Source: Staphylococcus schleiferi (GTDB lineage: Bacteria; Bacillota; Bacilli; Staphylococcales; Staphylococcaceae). From it: a stretch of DNA of 64,000 nucleotides. The stretch covers positions 806,001-870,000 of the forward strand of contig NZ_LR962863.1 in NCBI RefSeq assembly GCF_900458895.1. The letters run 5' to 3'. Positions 1,407-28,970 of this stretch are shown in pieces (position 1 is the first letter of the stretch; each line of letters begins with the position of its first letter). A program made the translations under genes and the position numbers. The notes under the pieces were generated by a model. The model was given only the letters and a program-made list of their open reading frames with translations. It was not told the origin of the DNA and made no database searches.

Positions 1407-2003
1407 ATGTATGAAGCGTACCATTCAGGTTGGATAGAATGTATTACCGGAAGTATGTTCAGTGGTAAGTCGGAAGAACTGATAAGACGATTACGCAGAG
1501 GTGTTTACGCCAAGCAAAAGGTTATCGTTTTTAAACCGGCCATTGACGACCGCTATCATAAAGAAAAAGTGGTATCACACAATGGTAATGAAATAGAAGC
1601 GATTAATATTTCTAAAGCAAATGAAATATGGCAATATAATTTAAAAGATGTAGACATCATCGGTATTGATGAAATTCAATTTTTTGATCAAGAAATTGTA
1701 GAGATTGCAGAAACACTTGCAGAAAAAGGTTATAGAGTAATTACAGCAGGACTTGATATGGATTTTAGAGGTGAGCCTTTTCATCCTGTTCCTGAAATGC
1801 TTGCTGTAAGTGAACATATTACAAAATTACAAGCAGTATGTGCTGTATGTGGTGCTTCATCAAGTCGGACACAGCGATTAATTGATGGTAAGCCTGCAAA
1901 AGTGGATGATCCGATTATTTTGGTTGGCGCAGACGAACGTTACGAACCGCGTTGTCGTGCGCATCATGTTGTATTACCGAGTGAAGATACTGAGGAGGGA
2001 TAA
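1407..2003 (+). CDS. tdk: thymidine kinase
   Basis: 198 aa. The enzyme phosphorylates thymidine to dTMP in nucleotide salvage. The P-loop reads [14 protein letters not shown] (residues 11-24), the Walker B-like DEIQFF and the lasso/zinc residues CAVCG plus the later EPRCRAHH give the type II (TK1-like) tetramer fold. The frame stays open upstream to TTG 1386, but homologues begin [11 protein letters not shown], and the RBS AAAGGTGG sits correctly for ATG 1407. It is followed after 5 nt by prfA, as in other staphylococci, so the two are likely cotranscribed. Confidence 0.95.
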
Positions 2004-2008
2004 GAATA

Positions 2009-3086
2009 ATGTTTGATCAATTAGATATCATTGAAGAACGTTATGAGCAATTGAACGAATTGCTAAGTGACCCAGAAGTGGTTAGTGATTCAGATTTATT
2101 GCGCAAATATTCAAAGGAACAATCAGAACTACATAAAACTGTAGAAGTTTATCGTCATTACAAACAAGTGAAAGAAGATATTCAAGAAATTGAATTAATG
2201 CTTTCAGAAACAGATGATAGTGATGAAGTGGCAATGTTAAAAGAAGAAGCTGCAGACTTAAAAGCAGAAGTCCCAGAACTTGAAGAAAAACTCAAATTTT
2301 TATTAATTCCGAAAGATCCTAATGACGAGAAAGATGTTATTGTCGAAGTACGTGCGGCGGCTGGTGGCGATGAAGCTGCCATCTTTGCAGGTGACTTATT
2401 CCGGATGTACTCTAAATTTGCTGAAGCGCACAATTTTAAAACAGAGATTGTGGAAGCAACTGAAAGTGATCACGGTGGATACAAAGAGATTAGTTTCTCC
2501 GTTTCTGGTGATGGTGCCTACAGTAAATTGAAATATGAAAATGGTGCACACCGTGTTCAACGTGTTCCTGAAACAGAATCAGGCGGACGAATTCATACAT
2601 CAACAGCAACTGTTGCTGTACTACCAGAAGTAGAAGATGTAGAAATAGAAATTCGCAATGAAGATTTGAAAATCGATACGTATCGTTCAAGTGGTGCAGG
2701 TGGGCAACACGTCAATACTACTGACTCAGCTGTACGTATTACACACTTGCCAACAGGTGTAATTGCGACATCTTCTGAAAAATCACAAATTCAAAAACCG
2801 TGAAAAAGCGATGAAAGTTTTAAAAGCGCGTCTTTATGATATGAAAGTTCAAGAGGAACAACAGAAATACGCAGCACAAAGAAAGTCAGCTGTTGGGACA
2901 GGGGACCGTTCTGAGCGTATTCGAACATATAATTATCCTCAAAGTCGTGTGACGGACCATCGAATTGGTTTAACGTTACAAAAGTTAGATCAAATCATGG
3001 AAGGAAAATTAGACGAAGTCGTCGATGCATTAACAATGCATGAACAAACAGAAAAGTTGAAAGAGCTTAATTCTGGTGAACTATAA
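2009..3086 (+). pseudogene. prfA: peptide chain release factor 1 (RF1), broken by one frameshift as written
   Basis: RF1 reads UAA and UAG and triggers peptide release. The first frame (2009-2803) holds the coiled-coil N-terminus, the stop-codon recognition region [12 protein letters not shown] and the catalytic GGQ (near residue 231) in [10 protein letters not shown]. At an A-run, 2793-2797, five A stand where four are needed: after KSQIQ the expected [15 protein letters not shown] continues only in the next frame, up to 3086. Removing one A restores a 358-aa protein, the normal length. RF1 is essential, so an uncorrected sequencing insertion is the simplest reading; the gene is probably intact in the cell. 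prmC overlaps its end. Confidence 0.93.
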
Positions 3087-3918
3087 TCAGTGGATAAAAG
3101 ACGCTAAACAGAAAATGGCGGCACAAGGCTATGAAGAAAATGCTGTCGAATGGCTTGTGATGGACTTATGTCAATGGTCTCGGACTCAGATGATTTTGAA
3201 TGAAAAAGACGTTTTATCGCAAGATAGATTGAAGCAACTTGAGCAAGGTTTGTCATTATTGTTAAAAGGAATGCCTGTTCAATATGTGGTGGAACAAGCG
3301 CATTTTTATGGACGTATTTTTAAAGTCAATCCTAATGTATTAATTCCAAGACCTGAAACAGAAGAAGTAGTGCATTACTTTTTGAATCAAATTAAACCGA
3401 ACATGACCGTTGCTGATGTGGGTGTAGGTAGTGGTATTATTGCAGTGACTTTAAAAGCAGAAATGAATGAATTAATTGTCTATGGTAGCGATATTTCAAA
3501 GCCTGCCTTATCTGTTGCTCAAAAGAATGCAAAAAAGCATAACTGTGAGATTCATTTTATGGAAGGCGATGCACTTAAACCGTACATTGAACGAGGTATT
3601 CAATTGGAAGGTTTAATTTCAAATCCGCCTTATATTAGTAAAGATGAAGTGAATGTGATGGGAAAAGATGTACTAGAATTTGAACCTCATTTAGCACTTT
3701 TTGCTGAGGAACAAGGCTATCAAGTTTATAAAGCACTGATCCGCGATTTACCTTCTGTTATGTGTGACGGTGCACCTGTTGTGTTTGAAATCGGATATCA
3801 ACAAGGGGAATTTTTAACCCAACTGATGCAATCGTGGTTTCCTCATATTAAAACGCAAGTGATTAACGACATTAACGGTCAACCACGTATCTTCACATTT
3901 AACTGGCACAAGATTTAA
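3076..3918 (+). CDS. prmC: peptide chain release factor N5-glutamine methyltransferase
   Basis: 280 aa, SAM-dependent enzyme that methylates the glutamine of the GGQ motif in release factors. The N-terminal helical domain is followed by the Rossmann fold with [15 protein letters not shown] (near residues 113-127) and the signature NPPYI (near 183-187) that binds the glutamine side chain. The GTG start at 3076 overlaps the last 11 bp of prfA in another frame, which suggests translational coupling with its own substrate protein. Product length and all motifs are normal. Confidence 0.95.
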
Positions 3919-3934
3919 AATTTTATATTTCATC

Positions 3935-4005
3935 TAAATAAAAGGGGTGAGGCATAGAGATCCGTCATCGAGGTATGGATTTCAGTCTTACACCTTTTTT
4001 ATTTT
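3935..4005 (+). promoter_or_regulatory. imperfect hairpin between prmC and the Sua5 gene
   Basis: AAAAGGGGTGAG near 3940 can pair, with one mismatch and one G-U, with CTTACACCTTTT near 3987-4000, followed by a T-rich run. It could be a weak terminator or attenuator; the loop is about 35 nt. Only the sequence supports it. Confidence 0.35.
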
Positions 4006-4040
4006 GTAGTAAAATATGAGGAAAGGAGAGGTGGCTTTCA

Positions 4041-5093
4041 ATGAAGGAAACCAAAATATGGGATGTCCGTAACTATACAACGTGTTTAAACACATATCCC
4101 GAGTTAGATGCAATTATTGAGACTTATCGACGAGGAGGGCTTGTCGTTTTACCAACTGAAACGGTATACGGTTTAGGCGGAAACGCGAGAGACGATGAAG
4201 CTGTTCGTAAAATATATGAAGCAAAGGGGCGCCCATCTGATAATCCATTAATCGTGCATATCTATGATACGGATCAACTTGATGATTTTGTATCGTCCAT
4301 ATCTGATGCTACAAAAAGGTTAATGGAAGCATTTTGGCCAGGTCCCATTACTTTTATTTTGCCTTTGAAAAAAGGTTATTTATGTGAACGTGTGACGGGC
4401 GGATTGGATTCTGTAGCTGTTCGCATGCCAAGTCATCCAGTAGCAAGGGCGCTGTTGGAAGCCGTTGACTTACCTATCGCTGCGCCAAGCGCAAATCTTA
4501 GTGGTCGTCCGTCACCGACAACGTTTGAACATGCATATGAAGACTTGAATCACCGGGTTGATGGTATCATTCAATCCACTCAGAGTGACGCGGGATTAGA
4601 AAGTACAGTACTGGATTGTACTTCCTTCCCATTTCGTATTGCGCGTCCTGGAACGATTACGAGAAGCATGTTGAATGAAGTCATGCCTTTAGCGATTGAT
4701 GAACATCAAATAGCAGCAACAGAGAAACCAATTGCGCCGGGGATGAAATACAAGCATTACGCGCCGAATACACCGCTAAAGATTATCCAGCAAATTAATG
4801 CACCGATTAGAAAAGAAGCGCACGAAGATTGGTCAAAAATTGCTTTTATAGTACCTAAAAATAAAATTCCTTTTTTACCAAAAGAAGCAAAAGTTTTAGT
4901 TATCAGTGAAGATGAAAATGATATAAAAGGTGCGAACCACCATCTTTATAGTATTTTACATCAATTGGATCAAATGCCATCCATTGAACTGGCTTATATT
5001 TTTGGTTATGAAGATAATTTTGAAACGGAAGCTTTAAGAAATCGTATGTTAAAAGCAGCAAATCAACAAGTGATAAAGGATGAAACACTATGA
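4041..5093 (+). CDS. ywlC: L-threonylcarbamoyladenylate synthase (Sua5/YwlC)
   Basis: 350 aa. It makes threonylcarbamoyl-AMP from threonine, bicarbonate and ATP, the first step of the t6A modification at position 37 of ANN-decoding tRNAs. The N-terminal YrdC domain (about residues 15-205) shows the motifs LPTETVYGLGG, KGRPSDNPL and SANLSGRPSPT; a linker with APGMKYKHYAP leads to the C-terminal Sua5 domain (about 230-345). The two-domain length identifies the Sua5 rather than the short TsaC type. The stop overlaps the next gene by 4 bp (ATGA), so they are one operon. Confidence 0.94.
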   Translation: MKETKIWDVRNYTTCLNTYPELDAIIETYRRGGLVVLPTETVYGLGGNARDDEAVRKIYEAKGRPSDNPLIVHIYDTDQLDDFVSSISDATKRLMEAFWPGPITFILPLKKGYLCERVTGGLDSVAVRMPSHPVARALLEAVDLPIAAPSANLSGRPSPTTFEHAYEDLNHRVDGIIQSTQSDAGLESTVLDCTSFPFRIARPGTITRSMLNEVMPLAIDEHQIAATEKPIAPGMKYKHYAPNTPLKIIQQINAPIRKEAHEDWSKIAFIVPKNKIPFLPKEAKVLVISEDENDIKGANHHLYSILHQLDQMPSIELAYIFGYEDNFETEALRNRMLKAANQQVIKDETL

Positions 5094-25085: not shown

Positions 25086-25943
25086 ATGAAGAACAAAGCG
25101 TTACTGACGACCCTTCTAGGTGTAGTCTTATTTCTAGCTGGATGTGATTACAGTAAGCCTGAAAACCGAAATGGTTTCTTTTATAATACGTTTGTTCAGC
25201 CTATGGACAATCTCATTCATTGGTTGGGGAATTCGTTAGGCGATAATTACGGGTTGGCCATTGTTATTCTTGTATTAGCTGTCCGTCTCGTCTTATTACC
25301 TTTTATGCTGTCCAACTATAAAAACATGCATATGATGCGTGAAAAAATGAAAATTGCAAAACCTGAAATTACAGAAGCACAAGAAAAGGTTAAACGTGCG
25401 CGTACTCAAGAAGATAAATTAGCTGCCAATCAAGAAATGATGCAAGTTTATAAAAAATATAATATGAATCCTATGGCAAGTATGTTGGGATGTTTACCTC
25501 TCATTATACAAATGCCTATCGTCATGGCTTTATACTTTGTTTTAAAATACCCATCAGGTGGGGGAATTACAAAGTTTTCTGACTTTTTATGGTTCCATTT
25601 AGATAAGCCCGATATTTGGATTACAATTATAGCTGGTGTGCTCTACTTTATTCAAGCGTATGTTTCAAGCTTTAATATGCCACCTGAGCAACGTCAAATG
25701 GGATACATGATGATGATTATTTCTCCAATTATGATTATTTGGATTTCATTAAGTTCAGCTGCTGCACTAGGTTTGTATTGGTCAGTGTCAGCTGCGTTCC
25801 TTGTTGTTCAAACTTATGTTGCTAACGTTGTCTATGGACGTAAAGCAAAAGCAGAAGTTGCACCATTAATTGAGAAATTCGAGCGCGAGAAAAATGCAAA
25901 AGCAGGGAAAAATACTCAAGTCGTAAAGAAAAAGAAAAAATAA
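25086..25943 (+). CDS. yidC: membrane protein insertase YidC/OxaA
   Basis: 285 aa lipoprotein. Signal peptide [20 protein letters not shown] with lipobox LAGC (cysteine at residue 20), then a short outer part, a first core helix (about 57-78), the charged coiled hairpin [19 protein letters not shown] and three to four more helices; [18 protein letters not shown] is the family signature. The C-terminus is lysine-rich, as in ribosome-contacting YidC. The frame is open from 25041, but RBS AGAGGTGG sets ATG 25086. Followed by a terminator. Confidence 0.94.
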
Positions 25944-25957
25944 GATATGACTAAGAT

Positions 25958-26000
25958 AAGTAGTGAGTCGATTTAAAAGTCGAGTCACTACTTTTTTATT
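25958..26000 (+). terminator. terminator after yidC
   Basis: AAGTAGTGAGTCGA pairs with TCGAGTCACTACTT with one mismatch over an 8-nt loop, followed by TTTTTATT. Confidence 0.85.
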
Positions 26001-26119
26001 TACCTTCCTTTTTATATGAATGAAAAAAGGATGGATAGTAGAAAAATCACTCATTATAAAAAATTGTAAATAAATGTTCACAAATTTATATGTATTAAAA
26101 TCTTTTTAAAAATACAATA

Positions 26120-26148
26120 TTGACTACTAAAATTTAATTGACTATAAT
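26120..26148 (+). promoter_or_regulatory. promoter of the His-rich surface protein gene
   Basis: TTGACT at 26120-26125 and TATAAT at 26143-26148 with a 17-bp spacer, an almost ideal sigma-A promoter. The predicted start, near 26155, falls inside the Zur-like palindrome that begins at the next base. Confidence 0.8.
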
Positions 26149-26169
26149 TAATCGTAATCATTACGATTA
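26149..26169 (+). promoter_or_regulatory. Zur-type operator, perfect palindrome
   Basis: TAATCGTAAT, a central C, then ATTACGATTA: 10-bp arms with no mismatch. It matches the known staphylococcal Zur box (TCGTAAT-N-ATTACGA core) and differs from Fur (GATAATGATTATC) and PerR boxes. It covers the predicted transcription start, where bound repressor would block initiation when zinc is plentiful. Confidence 0.82.
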
Positions 26170-26182
26170 AAGGAGAACAGTC

Positions 26183-28678
26183 ATGAAAAAAACAATAGTT
26201 ACATCAATGCTTGTTTCAAGCGGAATCTTGCTTTCATCACACGTAGCATATGCTGATACAACGGACAATGCGAAAGATCAACAAAGTGATGATCAGCCAA
26301 CAGAGGTCAAACAAAACAGTGCTCAGCCACTTTCAGAGAATAATAAGAACCTTGAAAATAAAGAACAGCAAGACCAAAGCATTCAGTCTGAAAATCGAGA
26401 CACGCAAGATAAAGTTGATAACGTTCAACAGAATCACAATGATGACATTCAAGCTGTCAATCAACCATCAAGAAGTACGAGTGAACATATACCTCAACCT
26501 GAAGTTGCACCTACTACTTCAACACATCCTTCAGAAACAGAGCATGCAAAGCCTTCTTCCACAGAAGACCTACATACCCATAATCATGAAAATTTAACAC
26601 ACACAGCGCATGATGAGCATCATCATGCAGAAATTCACCAATCTCATCCAATTGAGGAAGAACAAGAGGGGCATCCTGAAAAAGAGAAGCTTCAAATGAT
26701 TGGACCTGTCAACCTCATTAGTCCGACACATAGAGAGTTAAAACAAAATAAAGATGTTGTTGATCCTAACAGCTTTAGTGCGATTAGCTTTAAAATATAC
26801 GATAATTTTAATTCACACGCGCAATTAATCATGCCCAATGGCACTTATACGCCTTCATTTGGTTATTATGTTTTAAAGAAAACGGATTGGAAAGATGTTA
26901 AATTCAAATTACCACAAGTTCATGTACCAGAAGGTTACTATTTAAAATATTGGTCTTATGATTTGCCAAAAGATGGAAAAATTACAAGAGACCGCTTATT
27001 TAGAGCGCATATTGGTTTAGAAAAATATAAAAATACACCGCCTGTGTTAGGTCCTTTTACTAATATTGAATCTGATGAAGTAAATGCAAAACTTAGCCAA
27101 GTAGATAGAGACGACTATGCACCTATTTTCTTTAAGGCATTAAATGGCGGCCACTTTGAAAATGACGGTAAGTCTGCAAATAATCTGATTTATTATGTAA
27201 AGCACGGACAAACGTGGAAACAATTAAAAGATAACGGCATGGTTGTCCCTACGCCTAAACCTAATGACAAATATAATGAATTTATTGAATGGCGTTCAGA
27301 ACTTCCTAAAGACAACACATATCCATCAGATAATATATATTTAGCTGCTTTTGGTACGACTGATGTATTAATAGGAAAATATAAACCTACTGATATCAAC
27401 CATCCTTTAGATGAAAAAGATCCAGCACGCCCACATCCTAAATCATTAACACGTCCTTATGATAAAAATCACTACACAGCAATCGCTTTTATCGCAGATG
27501 GACCTGGTGCATTATATAATTACACTTCAACGGATAAAGCACTTGTTTATTTAATTAGAAACAATAAAACTTGGAAAGATTCATTTTTTGGAGGACCTGT
27601 TCCTGTTGCCGATGAAGGTAGTGTCTTTGTAGGATGGGATAGTCCTGTATCACGCGATAACAAAATTGAGTCAAAAGTATACCGAGCTAAATTTATGACA
27701 AAAGAAGAATTTGCCAAACAACATTGGGATACACCAAATGCTGAAGTAGGAAAAGCGGAAGAAGATGCACATGCGGATGCCTGGGAAAAAGAAGCAGAGT
27801 CAAAAGATTGGGATACACCAAATGCTGAAGTAGGTAAAGCAGAGGAAAATGCGCATGCAGATGCATGGGAAAAAGAAGCAGAGTCAAAAGATTGGGATAC
27901 ACCAAATGCAGAAGTAGGTAAAGCAGAAGAAGATGCGCATGCAGATGCCTGGGAAAAAGAAGCAGAGTCAAAAGATTGGGATACACCAAATGCTGAAGTA
28001 GGTAAAGCAGAAGAAGATGCGCATGCAGATGCATGGGAAAAAGAAGCAGAGTCAAAAGATTGGGATACACCAAATGCAGAAGTAGGTAAAGCAGAAGAAG
28101 ATGCACATGCGGATGCATGGGAAAAAGAAGCAGAGTCAAAAGATTGGGATACACCAAATGCAGAAGTAGGCAAAGCAGAAGAAGATGCACATGCGGATGC
28201 ATGGGAAAAAGAAGCAGAGTCAAAAGATTGGGATACACCAAATGCAGAAGTAGGCAAAGCAGAAGAAGATGCACATGCGGATGCATGGGAAAAAGAAGCA
28301 GAAACAAAAGATTCGGATATGCCAAACGTAAATACGGATAAAACAGAAGAAAATAGTCATACGAATATTGCGAATAAAGAGGTTAAAGAAGAACAACAAG
28401 ATCAAACGTCAAAATCAAATCAACAAGTTTCAAAACCAGATCAAGCGCCTGAGATGATTAACAATCAATATGCGCCACATCATATAAGCAATATGGACAA
28501 TAAGACTTCTCAAACATCAATGATGGCGTCTAGCCCTAAAACTCAGTCAAATCAAATCGTACAAAATCAAAATAATGATGCAAAAGATGTATCTGTTAGC
28601 GAAATGAATGTAGAAAATCAACAGCTAGCACCTGAGATGCCAATGGAAGTACAGAAACAAACAATTGCGCATGTATAA
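26183..28678 (+). CDS. secreted His-rich repeat surface protein, cut off before its LPXTG anchor
   Basis: 831 aa. Signal peptide with cleavage after AYA (residue 24), no YSIRK motif. Residues 25-130 are low-complexity Q/N/E/S; residues 131-164 hold 11 histidines in 34 positions, a likely metal-binding patch. Residues about 190-510 contain three related beta-rich units, each with a Y-V-x-(K/R)-x-x-x-T-W-K pattern and a (Y/F)-x-x-W-x-S/D-x-x-P turn, reminiscent of InlB B-repeat or SHIRT-like folds. Residues 515-710 are seven 28-aa tandem repeats. A stop at 28676 ends the frame; 16 bases later the same frame resumes and leads to LPKTG. With the Zur box in front, a zinc-starvation adhesin or zinc-capturing wall protein is inferred. 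No named homologue recognised. Confidence 0.85.
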   Translation: MKKTIVTSMLVSSGILLSSHVAYADTTDNAKDQQSDDQPTEVKQNSAQPLSENNKNLENKEQQDQSIQSENRDTQDKVDNVQQNHNDDIQAVNQPSRSTSEHIPQPEVAPTTSTHPSETEHAKPSSTEDLHTHNHENLTHTAHDEHHHAEIHQSHPIEEEQEGHPEKEKLQMIGPVNLISPTHRELKQNKDVVDPNSFSAISFKIYDNFNSHAQLIMPNGTYTPSFGYYVLKKTDWKDVKFKLPQVHVPEGYYLKYWSYDLPKDGKITRDRLFRAHIGLEKYKNTPPVLGPFTNIESDEVNAKLSQVDRDDYAPIFFKALNGGHFENDGKSANNLIYYVKHGQTWKQLKDNGMVVPTPKPNDKYNEFIEWRSELPKDNTYPSDNIYLAAFGTTDVLIGKYKPTDINHPLDEKDPARPHPKSLTRPYDKNHYTAIAFIADGPGALYNYTSTDKALVYLIRNNKTWKDSFFGGPVPVADEGSVFVGWDSPVSRDNKIESKVYRAKFMTKEEFAKQHWDTPNAEVGKAEEDAHADAWEKEAESKDWDTPNAEVGKAEENAHADAWEKEAESKDWDTPNAEVGKAEEDAHADAWEKEAESKDWDTPNAEVGKAEEDAHADAWEKEAESKDWDTPNAEVGKAEEDAHADAWEKEAESKDWDTPNAEVGKAEEDAHADAWEKEAESKDWDTPNAEVGKAEEDAHADAWEKEAETKDSDMPNVNTDKTEENSHTNIANKEVKEEQQDQTSKSNQQVSKPDQAPEMINNQYAPHHISNMDNKTSQTSMMASSPKTQSNQIVQNQNNDAKDVSVSEMNVENQQLAPEMPMEVQKQTIAHV
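27725..28312 (+). repeat. seven tandem 84-bp repeats (28 aa each)
   Basis: Units begin at 27725, 27809, 27893, 27977, 28061, 28145 and 28229. Each encodes WDTPNAEVGKAEEDAH followed by ADAWEKEAESKD; only a D-to-N (unit 2) and S-to-T (unit 7) change. An eighth, decayed unit follows (SDMPNVNTDKTEENSH). DNA identity is very high, so copy number may vary or be miscounted in short-read assemblies. Confidence 0.95.
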
Positions 28679-28888
28679 GCTTCAAACCATCGTATGAACG
28701 CACCAGTTGAAAATGTCGCTAAATCAGAGACGTATACATTAAGCAATAAGAATCACCAAGAAAAAAATAACAAGCATGAGAAGATGAATGAACTTCCAAA
28801 AACAGGTCAAAGTGAAAGTAAATCTCCACTTTTAATCTCTGCTTTATTCACTGCTCTAGGGGCATTGTTGTTAAGAAGATTAAAATAA
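28679..28888 (+). pseudogene. detached C-terminus with LPXTG sorting signal of the surface protein
   Basis: In the same frame as the preceding gene and separated only by its TAA at 28676-28678. It encodes a lysine/asparagine-rich wall-spanning stretch, then NELPKTGQSESK, a hydrophobic helix (SPLLISALFTALGALLL) and the basic tail RRLK, a full sortase A signal. An ATG at 28694 has no good RBS and would make a product with no signal peptide. So this is the end of the adhesin, split by a nonsense codon or a base error. Confidence 0.88.
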
Positions 28889-28936: not shown

Positions 28937-28970
28937 AACTTCAAAGGTTCTTGACACCTTTGAAGTTTTT
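28937..28970 (+). terminator. terminator after the surface protein
   Basis: AACTTCAAAGG pairs with CCTTTGAAGTT around TTCTTGACA and is followed by TTTAT. Confidence 0.9.

What the first reader, a model, noticed from the sequence alone, without database searches (positions are those of the whole stretch)
26120..26169. Zur-type operator placed on the start site of a surface-protein gene
A consensus promoter (TTGACT-17-TATAAT) is followed at once by a perfect 10-1-10 palindrome whose TCGTAAT/ATTACGA core is that of the known staphylococcal Zur box. The predicted start lies inside it. This would tie a large wall protein to zinc starvation, much like AdcR-controlled His-triad proteins in streptococci. 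I know of no described Zur-regulated LPXTG protein in staphylococci.
Basis: partly seen in the sequence, partly recalled or inferred. Interest (0 to 1): 0.78.

Follow-up and report, generated by a model that had tools for sequence, protein, structure and literature searches.

The report
Zinc-starvation switch on exported histidine-rich protein
A staphylococcus gene for a large exported, histidine-rich protein carries at its start site what looks like a perfect binding site for the zinc-sensing repressor Zur, so the cell probably makes this protein mainly when starved of zinc.

Summary
The operator is real. TTGACT-17-TATAAT (26120-26148) runs into a perfect inverted repeat, 11-1-11 rather than 10-1-10 (26148-26170). 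It is the only exact 19-mer Zur-type box in the 2.52 Mb genome (0.0003 expected). The five one-mismatch boxes sit at the same promoter position before zigA, rpsN2, cntK and two flavoprotein genes; weaker ones before adcA and rpmG2. A Zur matrix built without the focal site gives it the matrix maximum, 28.25; a Fur matrix gives 5.5. The S. coagulans ortholog keeps the operator 23 of 23, while upstream DNA is 106 of 176 identical.

S. coagulans copies reach LPETG. The protein has a conserved histidine patch, three ~95-residue internal repeats of no Pfam family and seven 28-residue repeats. Most likely it is a Zur-repressed extracellular zinc-binding protein; Zur binding, zinc response and zinc binding are untested. 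Zur-controlled sortase-type proteins are known in Corynebacterium diphtheriae; my (capped) literature listings showed none in staphylococci.

The parts
26120..26148 (+). sigma-A type promoter TTGACT-17-TATAAT
   Evidence: both hexamers identical in the S. coagulans ortholog, spacer 14 of 17
26148..26170 (.). perfect 11-1-11 inverted repeat TTAATCGTAAT-C-ATTACGATTAA: predicted Zur operator covering the predicted transcription start
   Evidence: 23 of 23 identical in S. coagulans
26170..26176 (+). ribosome-binding site AAGGAGA
   Evidence: sequence
26183..28678 (+). open reading frame, 831 aa, exported histidine-rich repeat protein; no Pfam or NCBIfam family
26183..26257 (+). signal-peptide-like N-terminus, aa 1-25 (MKKTIVTSMLVSSGILLSSHVAYAD), 96% identical in S. 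coagulans
   Evidence: by eye, no signal-peptide predictor was run
26567..26680 (+). histidine patch, aa 129-166, with HxHxH and one HxxHxH; 70% identical in the ortholog while the preceding stretch (aa 26-128) is 25% identical
26690..27712 (+). conserved central region, aa 170-510, three internal ~95-aa repeats (the first only weakly supported)
27723..28326 (+). 7.2 tandem copies of 84 bp (28 aa, DWDTPNAEVGKAEEDAHADAWEKEAESK)
28676..28678 (+). in-frame stop TAA that ends the protein before the sorting signal
   Evidence: a second allele (P0001, 691 aa, 2 repeats) ends with the same residues
28679..28888 (+). same-frame continuation cut off from the gene, holding LPKTG (28793-28807), a hydrophobic stretch and RRLK
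   Evidence: sequence, read by eye and apart from the gene
28937..28967 (+). terminator-like hairpin, 12 pairs plus T run; gene probably monocistronic
   Evidence: 4 such sites in the region, 2.0 expected from shuffles

Best explanation
Zinc-loaded Zur, most likely the third Fur-family protein of this genome (encoded after metal-ABC-transporter genes at 1301294), binds the perfect palindrome at 26148-26170 as a dimer and blocks RNA polymerase at the start site. In zinc starvation Zur lets go and the gene is transcribed, probably alone. The product is exported and binds zinc outside the cell through its histidine patch, helping zinc acquisition or buffering, or helping the cell to persist where the host withholds zinc. 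In S. coagulans it is wall-anchored by sortase; in this genome a stop codon removes the anchor and it should be released. Shown: promoter and operator sequence, its rank in the genome, the regulon geometry, conservation in S. coagulans, the stop codon. Inferred: Zur binding, zinc response, export, anchoring, zinc binding, purpose.
For: (1) Only exact box in the genome; 5 of 5 one-mismatch boxes lie at promoters: zigA, rpsN2, cntK and two flavoprotein genes. adcA (2 mismatches) and rpmG2 (3 mismatches) share the placement. (2) In the 8 promoters scored (this one included) the box core begins 3-9 nt after the best -10, sought within -3 to +14 nt. (3) adcA, cnt and zigA are zinc- and Zur-controlled in S. 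aureus (PMC5666155, passages; PMC13339975, passages). (4) Zur matrix 28.25, Fur 5.5; the 11 Fur-type sites used score at most 5.41 with the Zur matrix. (5) Operator 23 of 23 conserved, upstream DNA 106 of 176. (6) Genus: 52 exact 17-mer boxes in 34 of 84 genomes (reversed control: 1 place in 1 genome); 50 of 52 precede, by eye, zigA, rpsN2, two flavoprotein families, a methyltransferase, thrS, cntK or this gene; 1 precedes an unidentified 190-aa frame, 1 nothing clear. (7) Histidine patch 70% conserved beside a stretch of 25%; densest 40-aa window 11 His, reached in 3 of 5000 shuffles.
Against: No binding or expression data. The other boxes were found with a pattern taken from the focal site, so the matrix is partly circular; the independent part is which genes they precede. 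Of the 12 other places (one with 2 mismatches, four with 3) lie inside open frames and were dropped from the matrix. The 15-mer is not enriched. The review PMC6103462 (passages) warns that predicted boxes often fail and asks for binding proof or reporter assays. The gene is found in only 2 of 84 genus genomes, so it is lineage-specific. No NCBIfam model names L007 as Zur above its cut-off; the assignment rests on gene position and exclusion (L005 passes the Fur model; L006 hits a PerR model best but below cut-off). The anchor is lost here, and adcA, adcB and one flavoprotein gene of the same regulon also look split in this genome, so the regulon may be decaying or the assembly faulty.
Confidence: 0.77

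Rival explanations
1. The gene is Zur-controlled, but the protein has another job (adhesion, immune interaction) and zinc scarcity is only the cue that the cell is in a host; the histidines are incidental.
For: Repeat-rich exported architecture with varying repeat number (2 and 7 copies in two alleles), typical of surface adhesins (recalled); internal repeats of unknown fold.
Against: The histidine patch is kept at 70% while the preceding stretch diverges to 25%, and the gene has a Zur-type operator.
Confidence: 0.3
2. The operator is used by Fur or PerR, alone or together with Zur.
For: All three share a 7-1-7 architecture (recalled); cntK in this genome has both a Fur-type and a Zur-type box.
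Against: Fur matrix 5.5 against 28.25 for Zur, while the 11 Fur-type sites used score 21.6-27.8 with the Fur matrix when left out. The site differs from the Fur and PerR consensuses (recalled) at 4 of 14 positions.
Confidence: 0.06
3. The palindrome acts as an RNA hairpin or is a chance repeat.
For: It lies just before the ribosome-binding site.
Against: The predicted start lies in the left arm, so the transcript would lack part of that arm; no Rfam family there (only two microRNA matches far below their cut-offs, at 25942-26009); chance 0.0003 per genome; the same motif precedes known zinc genes.
Confidence: 0.03
4. In this genome the locus is a decaying remnant: the operator works but the protein without its anchor does nothing.
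For: Stop before LPKTG; other members of the same regulon look split here.
Against: 831 open codons, dN/dS of the central region 0.17 against S. coagulans (synonymous sites near saturation, and the value does not date the constraint), and a second allele of the same cluster with the same end and a different repeat number, so the released form is not a one-off.
Confidence: 0.25

Closest known systems
Zur regulon of Staphylococcus aureus (adcA, cnt, zigA, zur operon, rpsN2, rpmG2)
   Same: In this genome the same type of box lies at the same promoter position before adcA, zigA, rpsN2, rpmG2 and cntK
   Different: Table 3 of PMC6103462 (passages) lists no surface or secreted protein for S. aureus
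CmrA, CmrA2 and ZnuG of Corynebacterium diphtheriae (PMC6711530, PMC12445094, passages)
   Same: Zinc- and Zur-repressed, sortase-type cell-wall proteins; ZnuE, ZnuF and ZnuG bind zinc, likely through an HxD/HxH motif
   Different: Another phylum; homology searches reached only S. coagulans-named or unnamed close relatives; not next to a transporter; anchor lost in this genome
Streptococcal Pht histidine-triad proteins under AdcR (recalled)
   Same: Exported, zinc-starvation-induced in prospect, HxxHxH motif (1 here, 3 in S. coagulans P0003 and P0005)
   Different: No Pfam match; AdcR is a MarR-family repressor (recalled), not Zur
ZepA of Anabaena (PMC10957091, passages)
   Same: Zur-controlled exoprotein with a histidine-bearing unstructured N-terminus; mediates zinc supply
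   Different: Not among the homologs found; PEP-CTERM rather than LPXTG end

Membership tests
Staphylococcal Zur regulon | Zur box matching the regulon motif | tested here: met
   Maximum matrix score, only exact 19-mer box in the genome
Staphylococcal Zur regulon | Box overlaps promoter or start site | tested here: met
   Core 3 nt after the -10; 3-9 nt in the 8 promoters scored
Staphylococcal Zur regulon | A Zur protein in the genome | tested here: inconclusive
   Three Fur-family genes; L007 follows metal-ABC-transporter genes, but no NCBIfam Zur model passes its cut-off for it; assigned by position and exclusion
Staphylococcal Zur regulon | Zur binds the promoter | not testable with these tools
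   needs gel shift or footprint
Staphylococcal Zur regulon | Transcript responds to zinc and to zur | not testable with these tools
   needs RT-PCR or reporter
Fur regulon | Fur-type box TGATAATNATTATCA (recalled) | tested here: not met
   Fur matrix score 5.5 against 21.6-27.8 for 11 Fur-type sites left out in turn; absent from the 16 places with up to 1 mismatch
PerR regulon | PerR-type box TTATAATNATTATAA (recalled) | tested here: not met
   4 of 14 positions differ by count from the sequence; no PerR matrix was built; the only exact PerR-type match in the genome lies elsewhere
LPXTG wall proteins | C-terminal LPXTG, hydrophobic stretch, charged tail in the frame | tested here: not met
   Stop at 28676-28678; LPKTG lies after it. 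Met in the S. coagulans DSM 6628 ortholog (LPETG) and in 11 of 14 aligned homologs (two of the other three are partial records, the third is P0001)
Pht histidine-triad proteins | Histidine-triad Pfam domain | tested here: not met
   0 Pfam families at E up to 1
Zinc-binding exported proteins | Binds zinc | not testable with these tools
   Only the conserved histidine patch speaks for it

The most novel reading that the evidence does not exclude
In this lineage zinc supply has shifted from the Adc importer, whose adcA and adcB look broken here, to staphylopine plus a released, Zur-controlled histidine-rich exoprotein that captures zinc outside the cell: a protein zincophore that arose when a surface protein lost its wall anchor.
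Probability: 0.1. Interest if true: 0.72.

Novelty: new variant of a known kind. Interest (0 to 1): 0.55.

Why it matters
It would extend the staphylococcal zinc-starvation response from importers, metallophore, chaperone and ribosomal spares to an exported protein, as in Corynebacterium and streptococci, and would give veterinary staphylococci a surface or secreted protein displayed specifically under host zinc withholding. The form with an anchor in S. coagulans and the form without one here make a natural comparison.

Tried and rejected
Fur or PerR operator: disfavoured by matrix (Fur) and consensus. RNA element: no Rfam family above cut-off. Pfam, NCBIfam and PDB sequences: nothing for the window protein or the alignment profile; of two S. 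coagulans homologs one gave 0 Pfam families and the other one irrelevant match below cut-off. Relatives in other staphylococci: repeat-only similarity (50-54%) to two adjacent proteins in G030, neither with a Zur-type core within 3 mismatches in the DNA held; long repetitive proteins in G022 are noise (17-19% identity). A search for exact cores followed closely by ATGAARAAR in 84 genomes found 4: this gene, its ortholog and two AdcA-like lipoproteins (by eye); it misses imperfect boxes and other starts. The genus survey also used exact boxes only, so a Zur-controlled surface protein with an imperfect box elsewhere is not excluded. The first named-genome scan, with the window protein, found nothing; the scan with P0003 found S. 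coagulans DSM 6628. A second homology search with an alignment reached no protein beyond the first 23. Structure prediction never ran.

Full report
What is there. In the window it is the only perfect repeat of arm 10 or 11 with a one-base spacer.

Is it more than chance? The pattern AATCGTAATNATTACGATT was searched in the whole genome with up to 3 mismatches: 13 places, against 7 for the reversed control. By mismatches 0/1/2/3 the counts are 1/5/2/5; an order-2 model from the window expects 0.0003/0.013/0.3/4.1. So the exact and one-mismatch sites are real signal and the looser ones partly or mostly background. The shorter 15-mer with up to 2 mismatches shows no enrichment (17 against 20), which I count against any claim based on the short core alone.

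What the sites precede. The five one-mismatch sites precede a flavoprotein gene (Pfam Pyr_redox_3) followed by a membrane protein with a Gate domain (259383), a second flavoprotein gene, split here (473320), a ZigA-type COG0523 GTPase (604340; NCBIfam ZigA 524 bits, below its cut-off of 600), rpsN2 (1545377; named by eye) and cntK (2437686; NCBIfam CntK 367 bits, above its cut-off of 300). Of the two two-mismatch sites, one precedes adcA (338331; pieces hit AdcA, ZnuA and ZinT models) and one (266727) lies inside a 472-codon frame. Of the five three-mismatch sites, one precedes rpmG2 (1545492; named by eye) and four lie inside open frames. A weak three-mismatch core, found by eye, precedes the first gene of the zur locus. 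In the eight promoters scored, this one included, the box core starts 3 to 9 nt after the best-matching -10, which was sought from -3 to +14 nt. In S. aureus adcA is raised in a zur deletion and in zinc-poor medium, and cnt in zur and fur deletions (PMC5666155, passages); zigA is Zur- and zinc-regulated (PMC13339975, passages). This ties the motif to Zur without relying on memory of the staphylococcal Zur consensus, which I recall; a search of one B. subtilis Zur paper (PMC4324032) for the letters TCGTAAT found none.

Zur against Fur and PerR. A matrix from eight other sites (seven of the 12 other places, the five intragenic ones dropped, plus the weak core of the zur locus) gives the focal site 28.25, which is the matrix maximum; the eight sites, each left out in turn, score 12.1 to 25.5. 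A matrix from 11 of the 16 Fur-type places (the other five dropped: two inside frames, two without an iron-related neighbour that I recognised, one not fetched as a locus) gives 5.5. In 5 Mb of simulated sequence the best Zur score was 20.1. The next best place in the window scores 12.7. The training sites were found with a pattern derived from the focal site, so this is partly circular; the gene identities are the independent test. For PerR only the recalled consensus was compared (4 of 14 positions differ); the single exact PerR-type match in the genome lies in a clpX-like frame.

Conservation. The protein occurs in 2 of 84 genus genomes (G000 and G016); 2 more give repeat-only or noise matches. 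There the operator is 23 of 23 identical, both promoter hexamers identical, spacer 14 of 17, but the 176 bases upstream are only 106 identical. The window species is probably S. schleiferi, which I recall as the sister species (inference; the tools hide the name).

The motif across the genus. The exact 17-mer ATCGTAATNATTACGAT occurs 52 times in 34 of 84 genomes (reversed control: 1 place). Downstream genes, named by eye: rpsN2 15, zigA 11, two flavoprotein families 6 and 9, a methyltransferase 4, this gene 2, thrS 2 and cntK 1 (thrS and cntK frames only at about 300-465 bases), an unidentified 190-aa frame 1, nothing clear 1. None of the other 50 precedes another protein that looked exported to me on the first 55-110 residues. 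Imperfect boxes were not surveyed outside this genome.

The protein. 831 residues: signal-peptide-like start, a variable stretch, a histidine patch (HTHNH and HDEHHH in aa 129-166), a conserved central region with three internal repeats (second and third clearly related, hhalign E 1e-6, probability 91%; the first only weakly, E 0.01-0.02, probability 2-4%), seven 28-residue repeats and a variable tail. No family in Pfam or NCBIfam and no PDB sequence match. Against the S. coagulans ortholog the amino-acid identity is 96% (aa 1-25), 25% (26-128), 70% (129-166), 69% (170-510), 55% (511-710, repeats) and 18% (tail); dN/dS of the central region is 0.17, with synonymous sites near saturation.

The anchor. 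The frame ends at TAA 28676-28678; a same-frame stretch with LPKTG, a hydrophobic run and RRLK follows (28679-28888). The cluster representative P0001 (691 aa, 2 repeats; 43 member sequences, how many share the end is unknown) ends with the same residues. Of 14 homologs aligned (of 23 found), 11 reach LPXTG, 2 are partial records and P0001 does not; the named ones are S. coagulans, and P0002 lacks the N-terminal part. The DSM 6628 ortholog is 785 aa and ends with LPETG, a hydrophobic stretch and RKTK. So this genome most likely secretes the protein.

How it works, and what is known. Zinc-Zur blocks the start site; zinc loss frees it. In C. diphtheriae, cmrA, cmrA2 and dip0443 are zinc- and Zur-repressed and encode predicted sortase-anchored proteins, and ZnuE, ZnuF and ZnuG bind zinc, likely through an HxD/HxH motif (PMC6711530 and PMC12445094, passages). 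The Zur review PMC6103462 lists 'several surface-anchored proteins' for that species and none for S. aureus (passages). Ten literature searches (open-licence PMC only; listings capped, for example 20 of 197 and 20 of 140) showed no staphylococcal example in their listings; eight papers were opened for passages only. By the criteria of that review only the box itself is established here.

Noticed in passing
L107:1570-1965 and 1949-3187; L015:3399-3809 and 3829-4272 (own genome, 338 kb and 1300 kb): adcA and the adcB/mreB permease gene are each split between two frames in this genome. In 7 of 7 other staphylococci searched the second-best permease match is one full-length frame, and each has at least one full-length ZnuA-family gene besides its best match (orthology to adcA not tested). 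Real loss or assembly error is open.
   Followed up: partly
L020:2848-3273 and 3257-4018 (own genome, 473 kb): A Zur-box flavoprotein gene, 383-401 aa in 9 loci of other staphylococci, is split into two overlapping frames here.
   Followed up: partly
L019:2420-4875 (own genome, 259 kb): A Zur-box pair: flavoprotein (Pyr_redox_3) with a C-terminal CCGVNCSC, and a membrane protein with a Gate domain that reminds me of FeoB-type transporters; possibly an undescribed zinc uptake route.
   Followed up: partly
L010:1414-2616 and L010:2601-3476 (G030): Two adjacent exported-looking proteins with the same EDAHADAW repeat as the window protein, one with LPETG, and no Zur-type core within 3 mismatches in the DNA held: the repeat module occurs without the operator.
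   Followed up: partly
L090, L092 (G014, G018): Exact Zur-type boxes about 300 bases before a frame that looks like thrS (threonyl-tRNA synthetase).
   Followed up: no
window 26060-26075: A short stretch AAAATTGTAAATAAA is kept between the two species upstream of the promoter; possible extra control element.
   Followed up: no
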